This document shows positions 7,860-23,732 of a DNA stretch of 39,728 nucleotides, piece by piece. The DNA is from Bacteroidetes bacterium GWF2_35_48 (GTDB lineage Bacteria; Bacteroidota; Bacteroidia; Bacteroidales; GWF2-35-48), in assembly GCA_001769125.1 (NCBI GenBank), contig MEOG01000011.1, forward strand, positions 1 through 39,728. The letters run 5' to 3'. Positions within the stretch are counted from its first letter, which is position 1, and each line of letters opens with the position of its first letter. The position numbers and the translations under genes were made by a program. The notes below the pieces were generated by a model that saw only the letters and a list, made by a program, of their open reading frames with translations, did no database searches and had not been told where the DNA came from.

Positions 7860-8009
7860 ATTATTCTTAATAAACAAATTTTAATACTAAATAACCGAAC
7901 ACACTGTTTGTTTCGTTAGAAACTTTGTACTCTCAATGCAAATATAATCAATTCGTATATCTAATGCAACAATATTTCTGAACAAGCACACTCGTCCCCT
8001 CCCCGCAAA

Positions 8010-8127
8010 GCATTACACGGAGACGAGCGCAAACTGGGGAAGAATTTATTCATTTGATTAGGAACAAGCTTCGGTAAGGGAGTTCGGTATTACGAAACAC
8101 TCGACTAAGTCGAGCGCAAACTGGGGG
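8010..8127. repeat. folE 3'-end repeat, copy 3
   Basis: The leader GCATTACACGGAGACGAGCG (8010-8029) and the folE-end unit (8037-8127) match copy 2 almost perfectly, including AGGAAC and the palindrome at 8100-8114. It lies 150 bases upstream of the antitoxin start, so copies 2 and 3 bracket the toxin-antitoxin pair as direct repeats. The rest of the 7860-8147 gap contains nothing else recognisable. Confidence 0.9.
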
Positions 8128-8147
8128 AGACGATAACGAACTAAAAC

Positions 8148-10001
8148 TTATACTGCCAGTTCTTCTTCCACTTTCAGATTTTCAATAATAAAATCCTGTC
8201 GTTCGGGTGTGTTTTTTCCCATGTAGAAAGAAAGCATGCCGGCAATAGATTCATCGCGTTTCAGCATCACAGGTTCGAGGCGGATATTTTTCTGAATAAA
8301 TTGTTTGAATTCTCCGGGAGATATTTCTCCAAGCCCTTTAAATCGTGTGATTTCAGGGTTCACACCTAATTGCTTCATTGCTTTTTCTTTTTCATTTATA
8401 GAATAGCAATAAATAGTTTTTGTTTTATTTCGTACCCGGAATAAAGGTGTTTGAAGAATAAAAAGATGACCATTACGAATCAAATCAGGAAAAAATTGCA
8501 GGAAAAAAGTAATCAATAAAAGCCGGATGTGCATTCCGTCCACATCAGCGTCCGTAGCAATGACAATATTATGATACCTTAAATTTTCAATATCTTCTTC
8601 AATATTCAAAGCGGCCTGTAGCAAATTAAATTCTTCATTTTCGTATACCACTTTTTTTGTCATGCCATACGAATTCAGCGGTTTTCCTTTGAGGCTAAAA
8701 ACAGCCTGAATACTTACATCGCGGGCAATAGTTATTGAACCGGATGCTGAATCCCCTTCAGTTATAAACAAAGTGGTTTCAAATTTTCTTTCATCGTCTG
8801 TATTGTAATGGATTTTACAATCTCTCAATTTTTTATTATGCAGGTTTGCCTTTTTGGAACGTTCGCGGGCAATCTTCTGTATACCGCTTATAGCCTTACG
8901 TTCTTTCTCTGAATCTAAAATTTTATTTAGTAAAATCTGCGCTGTTTCAGGATTTTTATGAAGATAATTATCAAGATTTGTTTTTATAAAATCTACAATA
9001 AAATTTCTTACAGAAGGACCATCAGGTGCCATATCTTTTGATCCCAGCTTGGTTTTCGTCTGCGATTCAAAAACCGGTTCTTCCACTTTGATACTGATAG
9101 CAGCAATAAGCGATGTACGAATATCGGAAGTATCAAAATCTTTTTTATAAAATTCTCTGATTGTTTTAACAATTCCTTCTTTAAATGCAATCAGGTGTGT
9201 CCCTCCCTGCGCTGTATACTGACCATTTACAAATGTGTAATACTCTTCGCCATAATGACTACCATGTGAAAGAGCTATTTCAATATCTTCTCCTGTCATG
9301 TGAATAATAGGATACAAGCCCGGAGAGCTCATGTTCTCAGAAAGAAGATCAATAAGTCCATTTTTTGAACTGAATTTAGAACCATTGAAATTAATTACCA
9401 AACCTCTGTTCAAGTAAGTGTAGTTCCTTAACATTTTCTCAATATAATCGGTCAAATACCTGTATTCGCCAAAAATTGTATGATCAGGAATAAAAGTTAC
9501 AAGAGTTCCATCAGGCTGATCTGATTTCTCAAGCTTGTTATCTTTAATCATTTTGCCTTCAGAAAAATCAATAGTTTTAACCTTTCCTTCACGAAAAGAT
9601 TGTATAAAAAATTTCTGTGAAAGAGCATTTACTGCTTTTATCCCGACTCCATTCAATCCCACTGATTTCTTAAAAACCTTGGAATCATATTTTGCACCAG
9701 TATTCATTACAGAAGCAGCATCCAAAAGTTTGCCCTGGGGTATACCACGACCATAATCCCTTACCTGAAGTGAATCGTCATTGATATTAATATCAATATT
9801 TTTTCCGAATCCCATCATAAATTCATCTATGGAATTATCGAGAACTTCTTTCAGAAGAATATATATTCCATCATCGGGAGAAGAACCATCACCGAGCTTT
9901 CCAATGTACATGCCGGGGCGTCTTCTGATGTGTTCCTGCCAGTCTAAGGTTAGTATACTGCTCTCGTCGTATTTATATTCAGGTGTCATAATTTTCATCA
10001 A
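8148..10001 (-). CDS. parE: DNA topoisomerase IV subunit B (GyrB/ParE type)
   Basis: This 617-residue ATPase subunit of a type IIA topoisomerase unlinks daughter chromosomes together with ParC. Domain order is as follows. GHKL ATPase: catalytic Glu52 in [19 protein letters not shown] at 81-88, [14 protein letters not shown]. Transducer: QTKTKLGS, the K-loop. [18 protein letters not shown] and [12 protein letters not shown]. End: [13 protein letters not shown] and the C-terminal tail. The length fits ParE rather than the longer GyrB. A parC gene is not adjacent in the window. The frame is intact. It is divergent from porZ with 278 bases between. Confidence 0.92.
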
Positions 10002-18563: not shown

Positions 18564-21500
18564 TTAATCTGCCATTGGTTTTATCATACTTTCTATAAAC
18601 TCAATTTCTTCATTGGTCAATTTATATTTTGAGTATAATTGTCTGTCAATATCTTCTGTCGATTTACTCCAATCTAAATCTGAATCTGATGTAAAGTTTT
18701 GAAGAGGAACAAATTTATAAGTTTTTGAAGTTGCATCTTGACCTGCTTTTCCTACACTATGATAAAATCTTGCAAATTTTGTTGTAAAGTATTTGCAAAG
18801 GTTAATTGCAGATATTTTATCTAATTCTAAATCTACTCCTACAACCATATAAGACTCTGTACAAATTGTATTTGGACTACCAACAAATGTATTAAGGTTA
18901 TCATCATTTAATTCCGTTCCAATGTTATTTGCTCTCGGTGTATAGACCTTAAACTTGTCAATCCATTCTGTGTTTTTTGTTATTTCAGTTCTCTCTAAGT
19001 AACCAATTTTTTTTCCCTTCCCATAACAAATGACAGGTTCTATTAATCCTTTATTGGATTCACGAAATTTTTCGTCTTTTGAGAAATATCCTCTGAACCC
19101 AAAAGGTCTTAATGACGAGATGTGATTCTCAAAAGATTCAAATTTTGGATGAGTGTTAATTTTATTAATCATCTCTATTGCTATATTATGACGAATAAGT
19201 ATATCAGAATCTTCTGTTTTCAAACTTCGAGTATTGATTTTTGGTATTAAATCATCTTTGTAAGTAAAAACTTTAGTTAATTCTTTTATATTATTATAAG
19301 CTTTATCCCATAAAAAATAACAGATACCACCTCTAAGATTTATATTTTGAAAAATCAATTCTGGTTTTAGAAAGTCATGCAATTCCGAAATATGGGTATC
19401 ATTGAGCATTTGATCCCTAAATTCATTTAATCCTCTTCCGCCTGCAAACCATCTTGTAGGCATAATCATAGCGATGTTACTTGGATTCAATTTTTTTGCT
19501 ATATCTACAAAGAGATTATAAATAGGTTTAGCACTTGCTTGAGCACCCCCATCACTTTGCTGATAGGGAGGATTGCCAACGATTACATTAAACTTCATTT
19601 TCTTTTTATTAATTTTTATGGTGTCCTTTTCTATTAATTTATTTTCTTTGATTAAATCATATGACATGTAGTCTTCTTCAATAAGGTTAACATTTAATTC
19701 AAGTAGCGAGTATACTTTTCTCGTAAACTCGTAAGCAATTTTTGATGTTGGAATAGAGTAAAATTTGTTAGCTAATTTTTTAGATTTTTTATAAACTGCA
19801 TAAACAAACTCACCTTGTTTAGCCGCAATATCTAAAAGCGTTATAGATTTATCAATGGCTCTAATTGGTAAAGCATTAATAATTTTATCGGTTACAATTT
19901 CAGGAGTTACAATTTCAGAATCTGACAAGCGACTAAACTTTTTCATAGCGTTACTTGCTCTTTCTATTGGAGGAATTGCTGTATCATTTGCTAATGAATT
20001 TATATTTTGAATTTTGTAATCTAGTTCGCTTAAAATAAATGGATTGATGTGTTTTTGGAATAATGAAAGTATTTCTTTATCGAGATTTAAATTTGAAGCA
20101 ATACGCAAATTATCCACACTATTCTCAATCTGCCTAACAATCTCTTGCAGTGATTTAACTCTCGAATCTGTTAAAAATGCAAAGAATAAAATTCTTGCAT
20201 AAAACATTGCAAATTGTCCTTTATAATCAGTTTCTACTTCTCCTTCAATGGTTTTGTTCTTTACATTATCGTCATCTTCGTCATCATCATTTTCAGGTAA
20301 ATCTACTACATCAAGTTCATTACCTTCTCCAAGAGTAGGTTTAATTTCAATTCCTTGACGAGAGCCTATTTTTCCTTGTTTTTCAATTTCAGCTTTGATT
20401 TCTTCAATATCTAACAAAGAATAATCAATGGATATAGTTGTAGCTTCATCAAATACGCTTCTGCTACTTGAATATTTTCTAATAGCATCAAGAATATCGG
20501 TTGGTTGTATTTGAACAATTTTATTGTTATTCAAAACAACAATAGGAGATATTTCTAATTCTTTTCTGATTCTCTCTTCTAACTTGCTATTCCCGTTGGA
20601 TTCTGTATTTACGTTGTAAATTTGTGATTTATGCTCCTGCATTTGGAACATTCTATTTGGGTTAAAGTCAACCAACAAAGTTTGCGGCTTCATATTGTAT
20701 TTAACCACATCTCCGTTTGGTTCTTTGAAAACCTTAATATATTGATTTTGTAAACGAAATATTGCTTGGTCGTATTCTTGCGGAGATGCTGTGTCTTTAA
20801 GGTAAAGCATTGTGTCCCACTCTGGAACAGTGCTACCTGTCAGCATTCTGTTAACTGTTAAAGTGATTGTTTTTAAATTTTCACTTTCACATTTTTTGAT
20901 TTTTGATTGTACAGTTTGTGTGTCTTTAAAGTTTTTTTCGTTCTCAACACCAGAGATATTTATGATTTCATAATTGTTTAGATGTTTAAACTTTTGGTTC
21001 TTGATTAATTCTTCTAATGCATCACAAGATGCACGGTAAGGCAACACACATACAATATGACGACACATATTGCCGTCTTTAATTTTATCATAGTCCAAGA
21101 AACTTAATAAATTGGCATCTTTTTCTGAGCCATCAATGACTTTTAGTAAGTCAATAATTTCTTGTTCATACTTGAATTTTTTATGGAGTTTGTTTGTCTT
21201 ATCAACAGTAATGGATTGCGGTTTGAAAAGTTCTGAAAAAGCATAGGTTACTCCTTTCTTTTTCATTTCTTCCATTTTTTTGCGAGATGATTCATTTGGG
21301 TTAAATGCAAACCGAATCATTTGTGGAAATCCATAATATGGGTTGTCCCATTCCTTAATTTCGTCTTTATTAAGATTTTCTAAATCCCATTTTTCTTGGT
21401 CTTCTGCAATATTTGTAAATTGATAGAATGCAATAATATCATCATTTGTGAACTCGCTATTCATCAAAATTCGATAAGGGGTGCCGGAAAGATGAATGCG

Positions 21501-22520
21501 AATTTTAGCGTTAAAAACTTTAGTGGTAATTTCTAATTCATCTAAAGTATTGTCATTTAGCTTTAATTCACTTTTTATTTCTTTCGCACTTAGATTTTCA
21601 TCTTTTAAAACTTTGCCATACTCTGTGGCTCTTGCTCCAAAATGTGTTTCGTCAATTAAAAGTAAATCTATTTGATTTTTAAATATTTCTTTGTGTTTTG
21701 ATTTAATTTCATCTCCTTGAAGGTCTTGAAGTGTAAGAAACAAAACAATTTTTTCATTTGCCATTTGTTTCTCAGCTATTATCGTATCGCTTTGTAAAAG
21801 AGAGTTACTATCAAGAAAACTATATCCATCAAATTTAATATGGCTTTCTACAGTCCTTTTCCATTCTTCTTTTACATCAGCCTTGGCAGAAACCACAACC
21901 ACCAGTTTAGCTGCCATTTCAACTGCACAAAATATTGATGTAAATGATTTACCAAAACGCATTACAGCATACATCAACAAATTTGTTTTGCCTTTATTAA
22001 TTGCCTCTCGAAAATTATTTACTGTCTTTTGTTGATTTGGTCTTAGATTGTAATTTTCAGTTCTACAGTATGTATGAGTAATTGGAATATGACTTTCATC
22101 AAAACGATAATACTGATATTTTGAATCGTTTTTCTTATGCCCATTCTTAATATCACTTATCGCATCTTGCAAGTCTTTTTCTGTTGCATTTTTGAAAAAC
22201 TCATTTGAATAATAAGGGATATTTTTAAAAGCATCACGCTCTAACCGATTTCTTTTTAAGTCATTCTCTAGGAAATAATGGACTGCATAGTCTCTGAAAA
22301 ATGTTTCATCATCAACTTTTGCTACATTTTCAAACTTCTTTACAAGTTTAGGAAAGTATTTTCTCCACTCATTTAATCTTATTTCAATAGGGCGATATGT
22401 GTCGCCAACTTTTAAATAATTCGGTATTGTTTCGGTTGTAAAAGCATAAATTTGAGGTTCAACTCTTCCAATGATTATTTCATCAAGTATATCTATATTA
22501 ATGTTGTTTGTTTTAGCCAT
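18564..22520 (-). CDS. Single-chain restriction-modification enzyme: GIY-YIG nuclease, SF2 translocase, N6-adenine methyltransferase
   Basis: This 1318-residue protein has four parts in order. Residues 20-112 form a T5orf172-like GIY-YIG nuclease (IYAF 24-27, YLKVG 35-39, Arg48, Glu107 in NEFF). About 155-620 is an SF2 ATPase: Walker A with GKS 190-192, DETH 290-293, SGTP 345-348 and the Gln/Arg motif QAIFRLQNQ. An acidic linker lies near 745-755. About 860-1120 is a gamma-type methyltransferase: motif I DIAAKQGEF 897-905 and NPPYQ from 983. A target-recognition region ends the protein. The order resembles type ISP enzymes such as LlaGI, but with GIY-YIG in place of an Mrr-type nuclease. ATP-driven translocation and cleavage of unmodified DNA are inferred. 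It starts 3 bases after the subunit M-like gene. Confidence 0.88.
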   Translation of the reverse strand: MAKTNNINIDILDEIIIGRVEPQIYAFTTETIPNYLKVGDTYRPIEIRLNEWRKYFPKLVKKFENVAKVDDETFFRDYAVHYFLENDLKRNRLERDAFKNIPYYSNEFFKNATEKDLQDAISDIKNGHKKNDSKYQYYRFDESHIPITHTYCRTENYNLRPNQQKTVNNFREAINKGKTNLLMYAVMRFGKSFTSIFCAVEMAAKLVVVVSAKADVKEEWKRTVESHIKFDGYSFLDSNSLLQSDTIIAEKQMANEKIVLFLTLQDLQGDEIKSKHKEIFKNQIDLLLIDETHFGARATEYGKVLKDENLSAKEIKSELKLNDNTLDELEITTKVFNAKIRIHLSGTPYRILMNSEFTNDDIIAFYQFTNIAEDQEKWDLENLNKDEIKEWDNPYYGFPQMIRFAFNPNESSRKKMEEMKKKGVTYAFSELFKPQSITVDKTNKLHKKFKYEQEIIDLLKVIDGSEKDANLLSFLDYDKIKDGNMCRHIVCVLPYRASCDALEELIKNQKFKHLNNYEIINISGVENEKNFKDTQTVQSKIKKCESENLKTITLTVNRMLTGSTVPEWDTMLYLKDTASPQEYDQAIFRLQNQYIKVFKEPNGDVVKYNMKPQTLLVDFNPNRMFQMQEHKSQIYNVNTESNGNSKLEERIRKELEISPIVVLNNNKIVQIQPTDILDAIRKYSSSRSVFDEATTISIDYSLLDIEEIKAEIEKQGKIGSRQGIEIKPTLGEGNELDVVDLPENDDDEDDDNVKNKTIEGEVETDYKGQFAMFYARILFFAFLTDSRVKSLQEIVRQIENSVDNLRIASNLNLDKEILSLFQKHINPFILSELDYKIQNINSLANDTAIPPIERASNAMKKFSRLSDSEIVTPEIVTDKIINALPIRAIDKSITLLDIAAKQGEFVYAVYKKSKKLANKFYSIPTSKIAYEFTRKVYSLLELNVNLIEEDYMSYDLIKENKLIEKDTIKINKKKMKFNVIVGNPPYQQSDGGAQASAKPIYNLFVDIAKKLNPSNIAMIMPTRWFAGGRGLNEFRDQMLNDTHISELHDFLKPELIFQNINLRGGICYFLWDKAYNNIKELTKVFTYKDDLIPKINTRSLKTEDSDILIRHNIAIEMINKINTHPKFESFENHISSLRPFGFRGYFSKDEKFRESNKGLIEPVICYGKGKKIGYLERTEITKNTEWIDKFKVYTPRANNIGTELNDDNLNTFVGSPNTICTESYMVVGVDLELDKISAINLCKYFTTKFARFYHSVGKAGQDATSKTYKFVPLQNFTSDSDLDWSKSTEDIDRQLYSKYKLTNEEIEFIESMIKPMAD

Positions 22521-22523
22521 ATT

Positions 22524-23531
22524 TTACTTGTTTAACAGGTCAATAAACCTCGTTATTTTACCCTTTTTGCCTGTCTGTTTATCTTTTTCTTCCCAATCCA
22601 TAATGATGCAATATATTCCGTTATGTAACAAAATGTTTTGAAGTTCACATCCCTTGCACTTAATAGTTTTTTTTTCAGAATTACCAAACAAATTGCTATT
22701 CTCTTTAATTGTGTCAGTACAGCTATTAGGAAGTACGCCTTTTAAACCGTCCATTTGCCAAACATTCCACGAAATTATATAAGCGATATTTTGAATGGAT
22801 TCAAGCAAAGGTTCTGTTCCAAATTTATATGCATAATTCTCGATGAATGTTGTAAGCAATGCTTCACGTGCCAAAAGCAAACTATCACCTTGCCATTCAA
22901 AACCGTAAATGTTTTTATATGCGGTTTGAGTAGCTTGTAGCCATTCATCTATTGAAGCCACATTTTCATTTATAACTCTCAATTTTCTGTCTAAAATCCC
23001 GACTCTATTTTCAATTGGAATAAATTCGCCAGTTGTAGTATCATATCGACTTACTAAATATGGAGCTTCTCCACAAGAAATTTCTAAACGAGTATCACGA
23101 ATGTAGTCCTCCCAAGTTTTGCCTTTTGGAAAAGCTATGTTCCCTTTGGTCGTTTCCCAAGTTTTCGTGCCATTATTTAACAAAATTTCTTTATTGAAAA
23201 CGTTTGCTTTGCCAAACCAAGAACTGTCAATTAAATTATTTTGTGCATTACATATCCAAGAAGGAGTAAAAACTTCTGCCATTACTTTGGAACGAGATAA
23301 CTGTAAAATTTTGTCCTTATGAACTCGTGGCATAATAATACTACCATAATCACCAGTAATTAAATCAGGTAAAATCTGAGAAAAAAAACTAAATGATTCT
23401 CCTATGTGGCTGTAATTATCAGTAGCCCAAAAGATATTTTTATGTGTGGTTTGGTCACACAGCAGTATTTCAAGAACATTAGGATATTCTTTGATTATTT
23501 CACTCTCTAATATGTCAATTCCAGTTCGCAC
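22524..23531 (-). CDS. Methyltransferase-like partner protein ('restriction endonuclease subunit M' type)
   Basis: This 335-residue protein resembles proteins usually labelled restriction endonuclease subunit M. It has parts of an adenine methyltransferase: AEVFTPSWICN (85-95, like motif X xVFTP), EISCGEAPYLVSRYD (150-164, a possible SAM loop) and IYGFEWQGDSLLLAREALL (208-226, like the strand-2 motif). No (N/D)PP(Y/F) catalytic motif is present, so it may be a divergent accessory subunit rather than an enzyme. The C-terminal part has KCKGCELQNILLHNG. It starts at GTG (23529-23531) immediately after the regulator's TAA and runs to 3 bases before the large gene, so the three genes form one operon. 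Confidence 0.75.
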   Translation of the reverse strand: MRTGIDILESEIIKEYPNVLEILLCDQTTHKNIFWATDNYSHIGESFSFFSQILPDLITGDYGSIIMPRVHKDKILQLSRSKVMAEVFTPSWICNAQNNLIDSSWFGKANVFNKEILLNNGTKTWETTKGNIAFPKGKTWEDYIRDTRLEISCGEAPYLVSRYDTTTGEFIPIENRVGILDRKLRVINENVASIDEWLQATQTAYKNIYGFEWQGDSLLLAREALLTTFIENYAYKFGTEPLLESIQNIAYIISWNVWQMDGLKGVLPNSCTDTIKENSNLFGNSEKKTIKCKGCELQNILLHNGIYCIIMDWEEKDKQTGKKGKITRFIDLLNK

Positions 23532-23732
23532 TTATAAATTTACTTTGTTAGATTTTAAAAGCTCTTTCACATCAATTTCAAGAATATTGGCAATTTCGTA
23601 AAGAATCTCAAGTCTCGGTTGTTGTCGGTTTTGCACGTATGAATTTACCATATTGTAACTTTTTCCCAATTTATCAGCCAACCAAATCTGTTTGATACCT
23701 TTCTTTTCCAATACTTCTTTTATTCTATTCAT
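23532..23732 (-). CDS. Xre-family HTH regulator of the R-M operon
   Basis: This 66-residue helix-turn-helix protein fills its length with one HTH_3 domain: IKEVLEKKGIKQIWLADKLG, KSYNMVNSYVQNRQQPRLEILYEIANILEIDVKELL. The size and first position in the operon are those of R-M controller (C) proteins, which delay restriction until the DNA is methylated. Upstream is GGTTACC (23750-23756), a short palindrome that could be its operator. The stop TAA abuts the GTG of the next gene. Confidence 0.88.
   Translation of the reverse strand: MNRIKEVLEKKGIKQIWLADKLGKSYNMVNSYVQNRQQPRLEILYEIANILEIDVKELLKSNKVNL

What the first reader, a model, noticed from the sequence alone, without database searches (positions are those of the whole stretch)
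18564..23732. R-M system pairing a GIY-YIG/helicase/methyltransferase fusion with a methyltransferase-like partner lacking the catalytic motif
The 1318-residue chain has nuclease, ATP-dependent translocase, methyltransferase (NPPYQ) and recognition parts in one protein, like type ISP enzymes, but starts with a GIY-YIG domain (Glu107 in NEFF). The 335-residue partner has motif X-like VFTP and a CGEAPY loop but no (N/D)PP(Y/F). With an HTH regulator directly upstream this makes a compact three-gene system. The partner's job (SAM binding, specificity, or control) is open.
Basis: partly seen in the sequence, partly recalled or inferred. Interest (0 to 1): 0.68.

Follow-up and report, generated by a model that had tools for sequence, protein, structure and literature searches.

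The report
Split methyltransferase inside a restriction system
This bacterial defence locus appears to build its DNA-marking enzyme from two half-proteins, a small partner and the tail of the large cutting enzyme, which would let one recognition part serve both marking and cutting; some phages carry just those two halves.

Summary
In detail: three adjacent minus-strand genes encode an HTH protein, a 335-aa partner and a 1318-aa chain with GIY-YIG (T5orf172), SF2 helicase, methyltransferase and recognition parts. Databases already hold this common R-M family, so the pair itself is not new. The partner's role can be narrowed. It looks like the cofactor half (motifs X, I-III) of a split gamma-class adenine methyltransferase, and residues 975-1318 of the large chain look like the catalytic/recognition half. 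In natural fusions the partner is joined directly to that C-half; one fusion folds as one CamA/MmeI-like enzyme (pLDDT 91, pTM 0.89). Phage PTm1 carries HTH gene, partner and a free C-half beside a frameshifted remnant of the domain that precedes the C-half in the large chain. In 84 of 86 uninterrupted large frames the codon at the C-half boundary is ATG/GTG/TTG, with Shine-Dalgarno-like sequences in 10 of 12 Firmicutes genes, suggesting in-frame internal initiation. Proposed working: full-length chain restricts; internally started C-half plus partner methylates; both share one recognition domain. Not shown: a complex, methylation, or the short product. The large chain's own front half also folds with the C-half. 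The type ISP analogy holds for layout, not membership.

The parts
23532..23732 (-). 66-aa HTH (Cro/C1 type) protein, probable controller
   Evidence: Pfam HTH_3 7e-10; 74.6% identical over 63 aa to the HTH beside the partner in phage PTm1; similar HTH in 16 of 107 relatives
22524..23531 (-). 335-aa partner: proposed cofactor (motif X, I-III) half of the methyltransferase
   Evidence: PADLOC PDLC03390, 400.6 bits; no Pfam match; related to class A small 'N-6 DNA methylases' (hhalign 99.1%), 4 of 5 of which match only front parts of methylase families
23262..23276 (-). motif X-like EVFTP (residues 86-90)
   Evidence: E-V-x-[TS]P in 106 of 107 relatives
23058..23075 (-). CGEAPY (residues 153-158), motif I position
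   Evidence: CGE[AG]P[YF] in 107 of 107; aligns with the EPA.GEGAFL stretch of class A
22593..22598 (-). conserved D-W in the C-terminal tail (residues 312-313)
   Evidence: [DNE]W in the last 75 residues in 105 of 107 by script; L111's lies beyond the script's cut (sequence); L106 lacks it
18564..22520 (-). 1318-aa GIY-YIG/helicase/methyltransferase/recognition chain, proposed restriction subunit
   Evidence: PADLOC PDLC03626, 1422.3 bits over residues 3-1316
22149..22451 (-). GIY-YIG (T5orf172) domain, residues 24-124, Glu107
   Evidence: Pfam; alignment A3
21474..22052 (-). SF2 helicase (ResIII), residues 157-349
   Evidence: Pfam 5.7e-12
19599..19937 (-). 'KxG half': motif X (TP) and altered motif I (K901-Q-G903), residues about 862-974
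   Evidence: TP, K and G invariant in 62 sequences; motif X-I stretch (52 columns) related to class A partners (hhalign 96%)
18564..19598 (-). C-half: NPPY and recognition domain, residues 975-1318 (344 aa), proposed to be also made alone from an in-frame ATG at 19598-19596
   Evidence: PDLC03375 covers residues 968-1316; 69.9% identical to the 344-aa stand-alone gene of phage PTm1; start codon in 84 of 86 fused frames; position read
19563..19574 (-). catalytic NPPY (residues 983-986)
   Evidence: invariant in 62 aligned sequences

Best explanation
An ATP-dependent R-M system whose adenine methyltransferase is split. The partner supplies the cofactor half (motifs X, I, II, III); residues 975-1318 of the large chain supply the catalytic NPPY, the rest of the Rossmann sheet and the DNA recognition domain. 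This C-half is made in two forms: inside the full-length chain, attached to a related half whose cofactor loop is altered (K-x-G), to the helicase and to the GIY-YIG nuclease, which together act as the restriction motor; and alone, from an in-frame internal start codon, to pair with the partner as the modification enzyme. One recognition domain would then serve both activities, so their specificities cannot drift apart. The HTH protein probably times expression. Shown: gene layout, motifs, natural fusions and separations, the phage modules. Predicted: the composite fold. Inferred: internal initiation, cofactor binding, methylation, cleavage, regulation.
For: Natural fusions partner + C-half, with the GIY-YIG/helicase/KxG part as a separate gene: L110, L111, L113. 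AlphaFold model of the L113 fusion: pLDDT 91.2, pTM 0.89; it aligns with whole methyltransferases across the junction (about residue 328): CamA Z 18.2 (411 aligned, rmsd 5.1), MmeI 17.8, M.TaqI 12.7. Phage PTm1 carries the C-half (69.9% identical over 342 aa to this window's), HTH (74.6% over 63) and partner (63.1% over 331); the stretch upstream of the C-half holds only a frameshifted remnant of the KxG half. Fusobacterium phage FNU4 has an open frame of partner + C-half, and the search of that record with P0001 found the C-half region only. Of 5 class A partners scanned, 4 match front parts of methylase families, e.g. positions 9-118 of 311 of N6_Mtase, 11-121 of 259 of MmeI_Mtase. C-half as its own gene: L014, L109, PTm1. 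Boundary codon ATG/GTG/TTG in 84 of 86 fused frames, against Met at this position in 1 of 25 unrelated Eco57I-type enzymes. Shine-Dalgarno energy better than nearly all control start codons in 10 of 12 Firmicutes genes (KS p 1.6e-8, members related), and against synonymous resampling combined p 2e-4 (12 genes) or 0.005 (7 genes at most 72% identical). Low mRNA structure at the site in genome loci, mostly Bacteroidota, against synonymous resampling (45 of 54 genes, p 8e-7).
Against: The large chain's own KxG half and C-half also fold as one methyltransferase (pLDDT 85.4, pTM 0.82), and match CamA slightly better than the fusion does (Z 20.1 against 18.2), so the C-half has a covalent mate and the fold of the fusion alone does not decide. 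Foldseek superposes the fusion loosely (CamA E 3.2e-10, but TM 0.40 and rmsd 10). No complex was modelled; only 3 of the 85 rows under the fusion model are whole fusions. The class B loop CGEAP lacks the second Gly of the usual motif I, and class B matches no Pfam family. Two of 86 frames have no start codon at the site (L030, L042). Against synonymous resampling only 4 of 12 Firmicutes genes are individually below p 0.05, L178 and L179 show no signal, and without L180 (72% identical to L015) the combined p of six, worked out by hand from the listed values, is about 0.03. In the genome loci synonymous A-richness is spread over much of the C-half, and the structure signal at the site (z 0.75) only modestly exceeds others nearby (up to 0.53). 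Nine phage contigs carry a partner with no C-half found; they may be fragments.
Confidence: 0.6

Rival explanations
1. The large chain is a self-contained methyltransferase (its KxG half does bind SAM) and the partner is a catalytically dead, METTL14-like subunit that helps DNA binding or control.
For: The large chain's own two halves fold well together and fit known enzymes at least as well as the fusion and are one polypeptide in most members; the partner lacks NPPY.
Against: Phage PTm1 keeps partner and C-half while its KxG half is a frameshifted remnant; fusions join the partner to the C-half directly; class A partners keep a canonical EPACGxGNFL-type loop while the large chains have K-x-G.
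Confidence: 0.2
2. The partner is itself a complete methyltransferase with an unusual catalytic motif ([DNE]W in place of NPPY), so two methyltransferases mark the two strands of an asymmetric site.
For: Strong conservation of CGEAP and [DNE]W; nine phage contigs with the partner and no C-half found.
Against: By inspection the partner is too short after motif III for beta 5-7; class A relatives match only front parts of methylase families; in the fusion model the sheet is completed by the C-half.
Confidence: 0.1
3. The conserved Met at the C-half boundary is a relic of gene fusion or a structural residue, with no internal start; full-length chain and partner form one bifunctional complex in which the partner displaces the KxG half.
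For: C-halves occur fused to the large chain, fused to the partner, or alone; two frames lack the start codon; RNA-level signals are modest once the protein sequence is held fixed.
Against: When the residue is Val it is GTG in 3 of 3 (two of the genes 92% identical) although GTG is 11.5% of Val codons in the 12 Firmicutes genes; Shine-Dalgarno signal on two controls.
Confidence: 0.27

Closest known systems
PADLOC PDLC03626 'REase_MTase_IIG', PDLC03390 and PDLC03375 'MTase_II'
   Same: Same protein families: P0001 matches PDLC03626 nearly full length, P0002 PDLC03390, and the C-half PDLC03375.
   Different: The library lists the two halves as separate type II methyltransferases; its labels do not say that they complete one fold.
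Type ISP enzymes LlaGI / LlaBIII
   Same: Nuclease, ATP motor, methyltransferase and recognition domain in one chain; the methyltransferase part aligns with LlaGI (Z 19.4) and LlaBIII (18.6).
   Different: GIY-YIG instead of the Mrr-like nuclease (the ISP feature is recalled); K-x-G loop; partner gene present.
CamA, MmeI, M.TaqI (gamma-class N6-adenine methyltransferases)
   Same: Fold of partner half plus C-half.
   Different: One uninterrupted chain each (recalled); here two proteins in most members.
M.AquI and M.EcoHK31I (two-polypeptide C5 methyltransferases, PMC3404938, passages read)
   Same: Natural two-chain DNA methyltransferases.
   Different: C5 class, other split points; no sharing with a restriction motor is told in the passages. 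A nested reading frame in M.EcoHK31I is recalled, not read.
McrB long/short forms (PMC12602166 and PMC12707154, passages read)
   Same: In-frame internal start in a restriction gene giving a C-terminal form.
   Different: Type IV GTPase regulation, not methylation.
DnmA-YeeB-YeeC (PMC9973331, passages read)
   Same: Adenine methyltransferase, SF2 helicase and T5orf172/GIY-YIG protein in one gene cluster.
   Different: MmeI-like methyltransferase, three separate genes; no half-partner is told in the passages.

Membership tests
GIY-YIG superfamily (T5orf172 branch) | family profile match above its cut-off | tested here: met
   29.4 bits against 20, E 1.2e-6; 28 of 33 members match at E 0.1
GIY-YIG superfamily (T5orf172 branch) | conserved Tyr, Gly of the YIG element, Arg and Glu (residue set recalled) | tested here: met
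   Y25, G39, E107 invariant and R48 nearly so in 33 sequences
GIY-YIG superfamily (T5orf172 branch) | fold | not tested
   N-terminus not modelled; profile search of PDB sequences gave no significant hit
Type ISP | N-terminal Mrr-like PD-(D/E)XK nuclease (recalled) | tested here: not met
   N-terminus is T5orf172; no nuclease family listed in the whole-chain Pfam scan
Type ISP | SF2 motor plus methyltransferase plus recognition domain in one chain | tested here: met
Type ISP | one polypeptide sufficient for restriction and modification | not testable with these tools
   a partner is in 10 of 11 plasmid stretches fetched through the large protein
gamma-class N6-adenine methyltransferase (partner + C-half) | motifs X-I-II-III-IV in order | tested here: met
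   X, I-III in the partner, NPPY in the C-half; order contiguous in L110, L111, L113 and FNU4
gamma-class N6-adenine methyltransferase (partner + C-half) | fold | tested here: met
   model of natural fusion L113; not modelled for this window's own pair
gamma-class N6-adenine methyltransferase (partner + C-half) | canonical motif I | tested here: inconclusive
   class A canonical type, class B CGEAP
gamma-class N6-adenine methyltransferase (partner + C-half) | methylates adenine | not testable with these tools
   no methylome data

The most novel reading that the evidence does not exclude
A nested in-frame gene makes one target-recognition/catalytic half serve two alternative Rossmann mates: a SAM-binding partner (methylation) and an altered K-x-G half tied to a helicase and GIY-YIG nuclease (restriction). 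This half-swap would be a new way for an R-M system to lock the specificities of marking and cutting together, and phages exploit it by keeping just the two marking halves.
Probability: 0.43. Interest if true: 0.78.

Novelty: new variant of a known kind. Interest (0 to 1): 0.63.

Tried and rejected
PDB sequence searches were uninformative: P0001 no hit, P0002 chance hits only, GIY-YIG alignment no significant hit, C-half no hit; class A partners weakly hit one type I M subunit (E 0.0022). NCBIfam had nothing above its cut-offs for the three proteins. PHROGs had no match for P0002.

Counts that were mended: the first count of upstream HTH genes (4 of 107) left out HTH genes that overlap the partner's start; the recount is 16 of 107. 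Loci that first seemed to lack the large gene (L066, L070, L075, L092) do have it; the first search missed them (recount). The first control for the boundary Met was too narrow (4 rows) and was redone with 28 rows, of which 3 that belong to the family (L161, L166, L169) were set aside. In that control an in-frame Met within 8 codons upstream occurs in 11 of 25, so the upstream Met of the two exceptions L030 and L042 is no support. A tally of large-chain motifs used a pattern that missed the P0001-like clade and is not used. Alignment A3 holds 28 of the 37 dissimilar rows, the window and 4 plasmid rows.

Direct comparison of class B partners with the KxG half was weak (hhalign 49%); the link runs through class A. 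VIA's top row for the large chain (Vibrio MTase, Z 22.5) has an rmsd of 25 and is not leaned on.

Literature: searches listed nothing that, from titles, abstract beginnings and the passages I read, describes this split or the internal start; subscription papers and REBASE were not searchable.
Full report
What is there. Three genes lie head to tail on the minus strand: a 66-aa HTH protein (23532-23732), a 335-aa partner (22524-23531, GTG start) and a 1318-aa chain (18564-22520). The window is contig C11 of a 5.98-Mb, 142-contig genome. The large chain matches Pfam ResIII and Eco57I and, nearly full length, PADLOC PDLC03626 'REase_MTase_IIG'; the partner matches PDLC03390 'MTase_II'. The family is therefore known in sequence. 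In plasmids it is annotated 'Eco57I restriction-modification methylase domain-containing protein' and 'restriction endonuclease' or 'restriction endonuclease subunit M'. A search of 395 genomes of the class with the partner matched 6, the window's own among them; one of the six (G243) shows only a class A relative.

GIY-YIG. The N-terminal 184 residues alone match T5orf172 above its cut-off, and 28 of 33 aligned members do so at E 0.1. Y25, K37, G39, D77 and E107 are invariant in 33 sequences, R48 and H81 nearly so. The fold was not modelled.

The partner. Over 107 relatives CGE[AG]P[YF] is in 107, E-V-x-[TS]P in 106, a [DNE]W in the tail in 105 by script and 106 by eye, and (N/D)PP(Y/F/W) in none; the one apparent case is the C-half fused behind the partner domain in L113. 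Some large proteins have instead a smaller 'N-6 DNA methylase' beside them (class A; seven examined, 208-257 aa). Classes A and B are related (hhalign 99.1%). Class A has a canonical-type motif I (EPACGSGNFL in L017) and lacks NPPY as well (7 of 7). Of five class A proteins scanned, four match only front parts of methylase families, e.g. N6_Mtase positions 9-118 of 311 and MmeI_Mtase 11-121 of 259 for L016; the fifth and the class B partners match no Pfam family. The partner thus looks like the front half of a methyltransferase. A P0003-like HTH gene precedes or overlaps the partner gene in 16 of 107 relatives.

Co-occurrence. Of 65 genome loci with at least 4.3 kb downstream of the partner (of 80, all found through the partner), 62 hold an intact large gene in the locus, 57 adjacent within 120 nt on the same strand; 3 hold fragments; none lacks it. 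In the other direction, of 11 plasmid stretches fetched through the large protein, 10 contain a partner (9 class A, 1 class B); the eleventh starts at base 1 of its record, which has a class B match elsewhere.

The C-half is a module. In L110, L111 and L113 the partner is fused to the NPPY/recognition half, and the GIY-YIG/helicase/KxG part is a separate gene. In L014 and L109 the C-half is a gene of its own, beginning at or a few codons before the homologous site. Tenacibaculum phage PTm1 carries a 344-aa C-half gene, the HTH and the partner; they are 69.9% (342 aa), 74.6% (63 aa) and 63.1% (331 aa) identical to this window's. A search of the IMG/VR copy of that genome with the whole large chain found only its residues 866-1316, and the part before the C-half is interrupted by stops and a frameshift. 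So this phage kept partner and C-half intact while the KxG half decayed. In Fusobacterium phage FNU4 an open frame of 630 codons spans partner and C-half (the annotated gene starts inside the partner part), and the only match to the large chain in that 44-kb record is residues 973-1314. Phages carrying methyltransferases for protection are known (PMC4190342, abstract and outline read).

Fold. The natural fusion L113 was modelled with 85 rows, 3 of them whole fusions: pLDDT 91.2, pTM 0.89. Strands in order come from the partner (motifs I-III) and then from the C-half (NPPY onward), and the model aligns with whole enzymes across the junction: CamA Z 18.2, MmeI 17.8, LlaGI 16.3, M.TaqI 12.7; Foldseek finds the same families (CamA E 3.2e-10) with loose superposition (TM 0.40, rmsd 10). 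The caution: residues 683-1318 of this window's chain, its KxG half plus C-half, also fold well (pLDDT 85.4, pTM 0.82), and fit as well or better (PacII M 21.1, CamA 20.1, LlaGI 19.4). The C-half can thus have two mates. The chain's own mate has an altered loop in which the first Gly of motif I is Lys (K and G invariant in 62 sequences); its motif X-I stretch is related to class A partners (hhalign 96%, 52 columns).

Internal start. If the C-half needs a second mate, it should also exist alone. In 86 uninterrupted large frames the codon eight residues before NPP(Y/F) is ATG 78, GTG 3, TTG 3, CTA 1, CTT 1 (only identical contexts removed, so many are related). In 25 unrelated Eco57I-type proteins Met is there once, Gly 16 times. 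When the residue is Val it is GTG in 3 of 3, two of these genes being 92% identical, while GTG is 11.5% of Val codons in 12 Firmicutes genes; when Leu, TTG in 3 of 5 (18.4%). In those 12 genes the Shine-Dalgarno energy at the site beats at least 94% of control start codons in 10, not in L178 and L179 (KS p 1.6e-8, members related). Against synonymous resampling 4 of 12 are individually below 0.05; the combined p is 2e-4 for 12 and 0.005 for 7 genes at most 72% identical, about 0.03 if L180 is dropped (by hand). In genome loci, mostly Bacteroidota, plus the window, the site is A-rich and little structured compared with other in-frame ATGs in 53 genes, and less structured than synonymous resampling predicts (45 of 54 genes, p 8e-7; 162 control positions average -0.11). 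A scan along the gene puts the highest structure score at the site, modestly, but the A-richness is broad. The lone phage fusion FNU4, with no second mate found, has GTA there. In PTm1 the annotated C-half gene starts at exactly this Met. In the window the ATG is at 19598-19596, residue 975, after an A-rich stretch; the predicted product has 344 residues, as in PTm1.

Working. I infer: full-length chain = restriction motor (recognition by the C-half, ATP-driven movement, GIY-YIG cutting); partner + free C-half = methyltransferase of the same specificity; HTH = timing. Rivals are given in their field. The split methyltransferase is the better-supported part; the internal start and the division of labour are inferences.

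Known and new. Two-chain C5 methyltransferases (M.AquI, M.EcoHK31I; PMC3404938, passages) and an in-frame short form of a restriction protein (McrB; PMC12602166, PMC12707154, passages) are precedents for the pieces. CglI (PMC5737866, abstract beginning and passages) is another ATP-dependent restriction enzyme of more than one protein. Passages of PMC10853773, PMC12898733 and PMC7824862 and the abstract and outline of PMC9613975 were also seen and did not describe this system. I found no description of a naturally split gamma-class adenine methyltransferase sharing its recognition half with a restriction motor, but REBASE and subscription papers could not be read.

Noticed in passing
L108, L114, L115, L117, L120, L123, L124, L125, L126: Nine viral contigs (5-57 kb) carry the partner with no C-half or large gene found in the contig. 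They may be fragments; otherwise decoys or helpers using a host C-half.
   Followed up: partly
L118, L121, L122 (records of 411, 345 and 233 kb): Three huge phages have a partner and, some 70-165 kb away in the record, a 1796-1928-aa large-chain-like frame. A frame resembling SAM synthetase (recognised by eye, not searched) lies about 5-6 kb from the partner in L118 and L121.
   Followed up: partly
about 12 codons upstream of the internal start in the large genes of genome loci: mRNA there is more structured than synonymous resampling predicts (mean z -1.02, positive in 21% of 53 genes); possibly a control element.
   Followed up: no
L074:4059-7952 and 7989-8987: In Capnocytophaga bilenii the intact large gene lies divergently upstream of the partner instead of downstream.
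   Followed up: no
L012:9062-10246: An IS256 transposase gene lies between partner and C-half in a Bifidobacterium longum plasmid.
   Followed up: no
L112:7908-9887: A partner-C-half fusion appears broken in two frames, partner front (249 aa) and tail plus C-half (405 aa).
   Followed up: no
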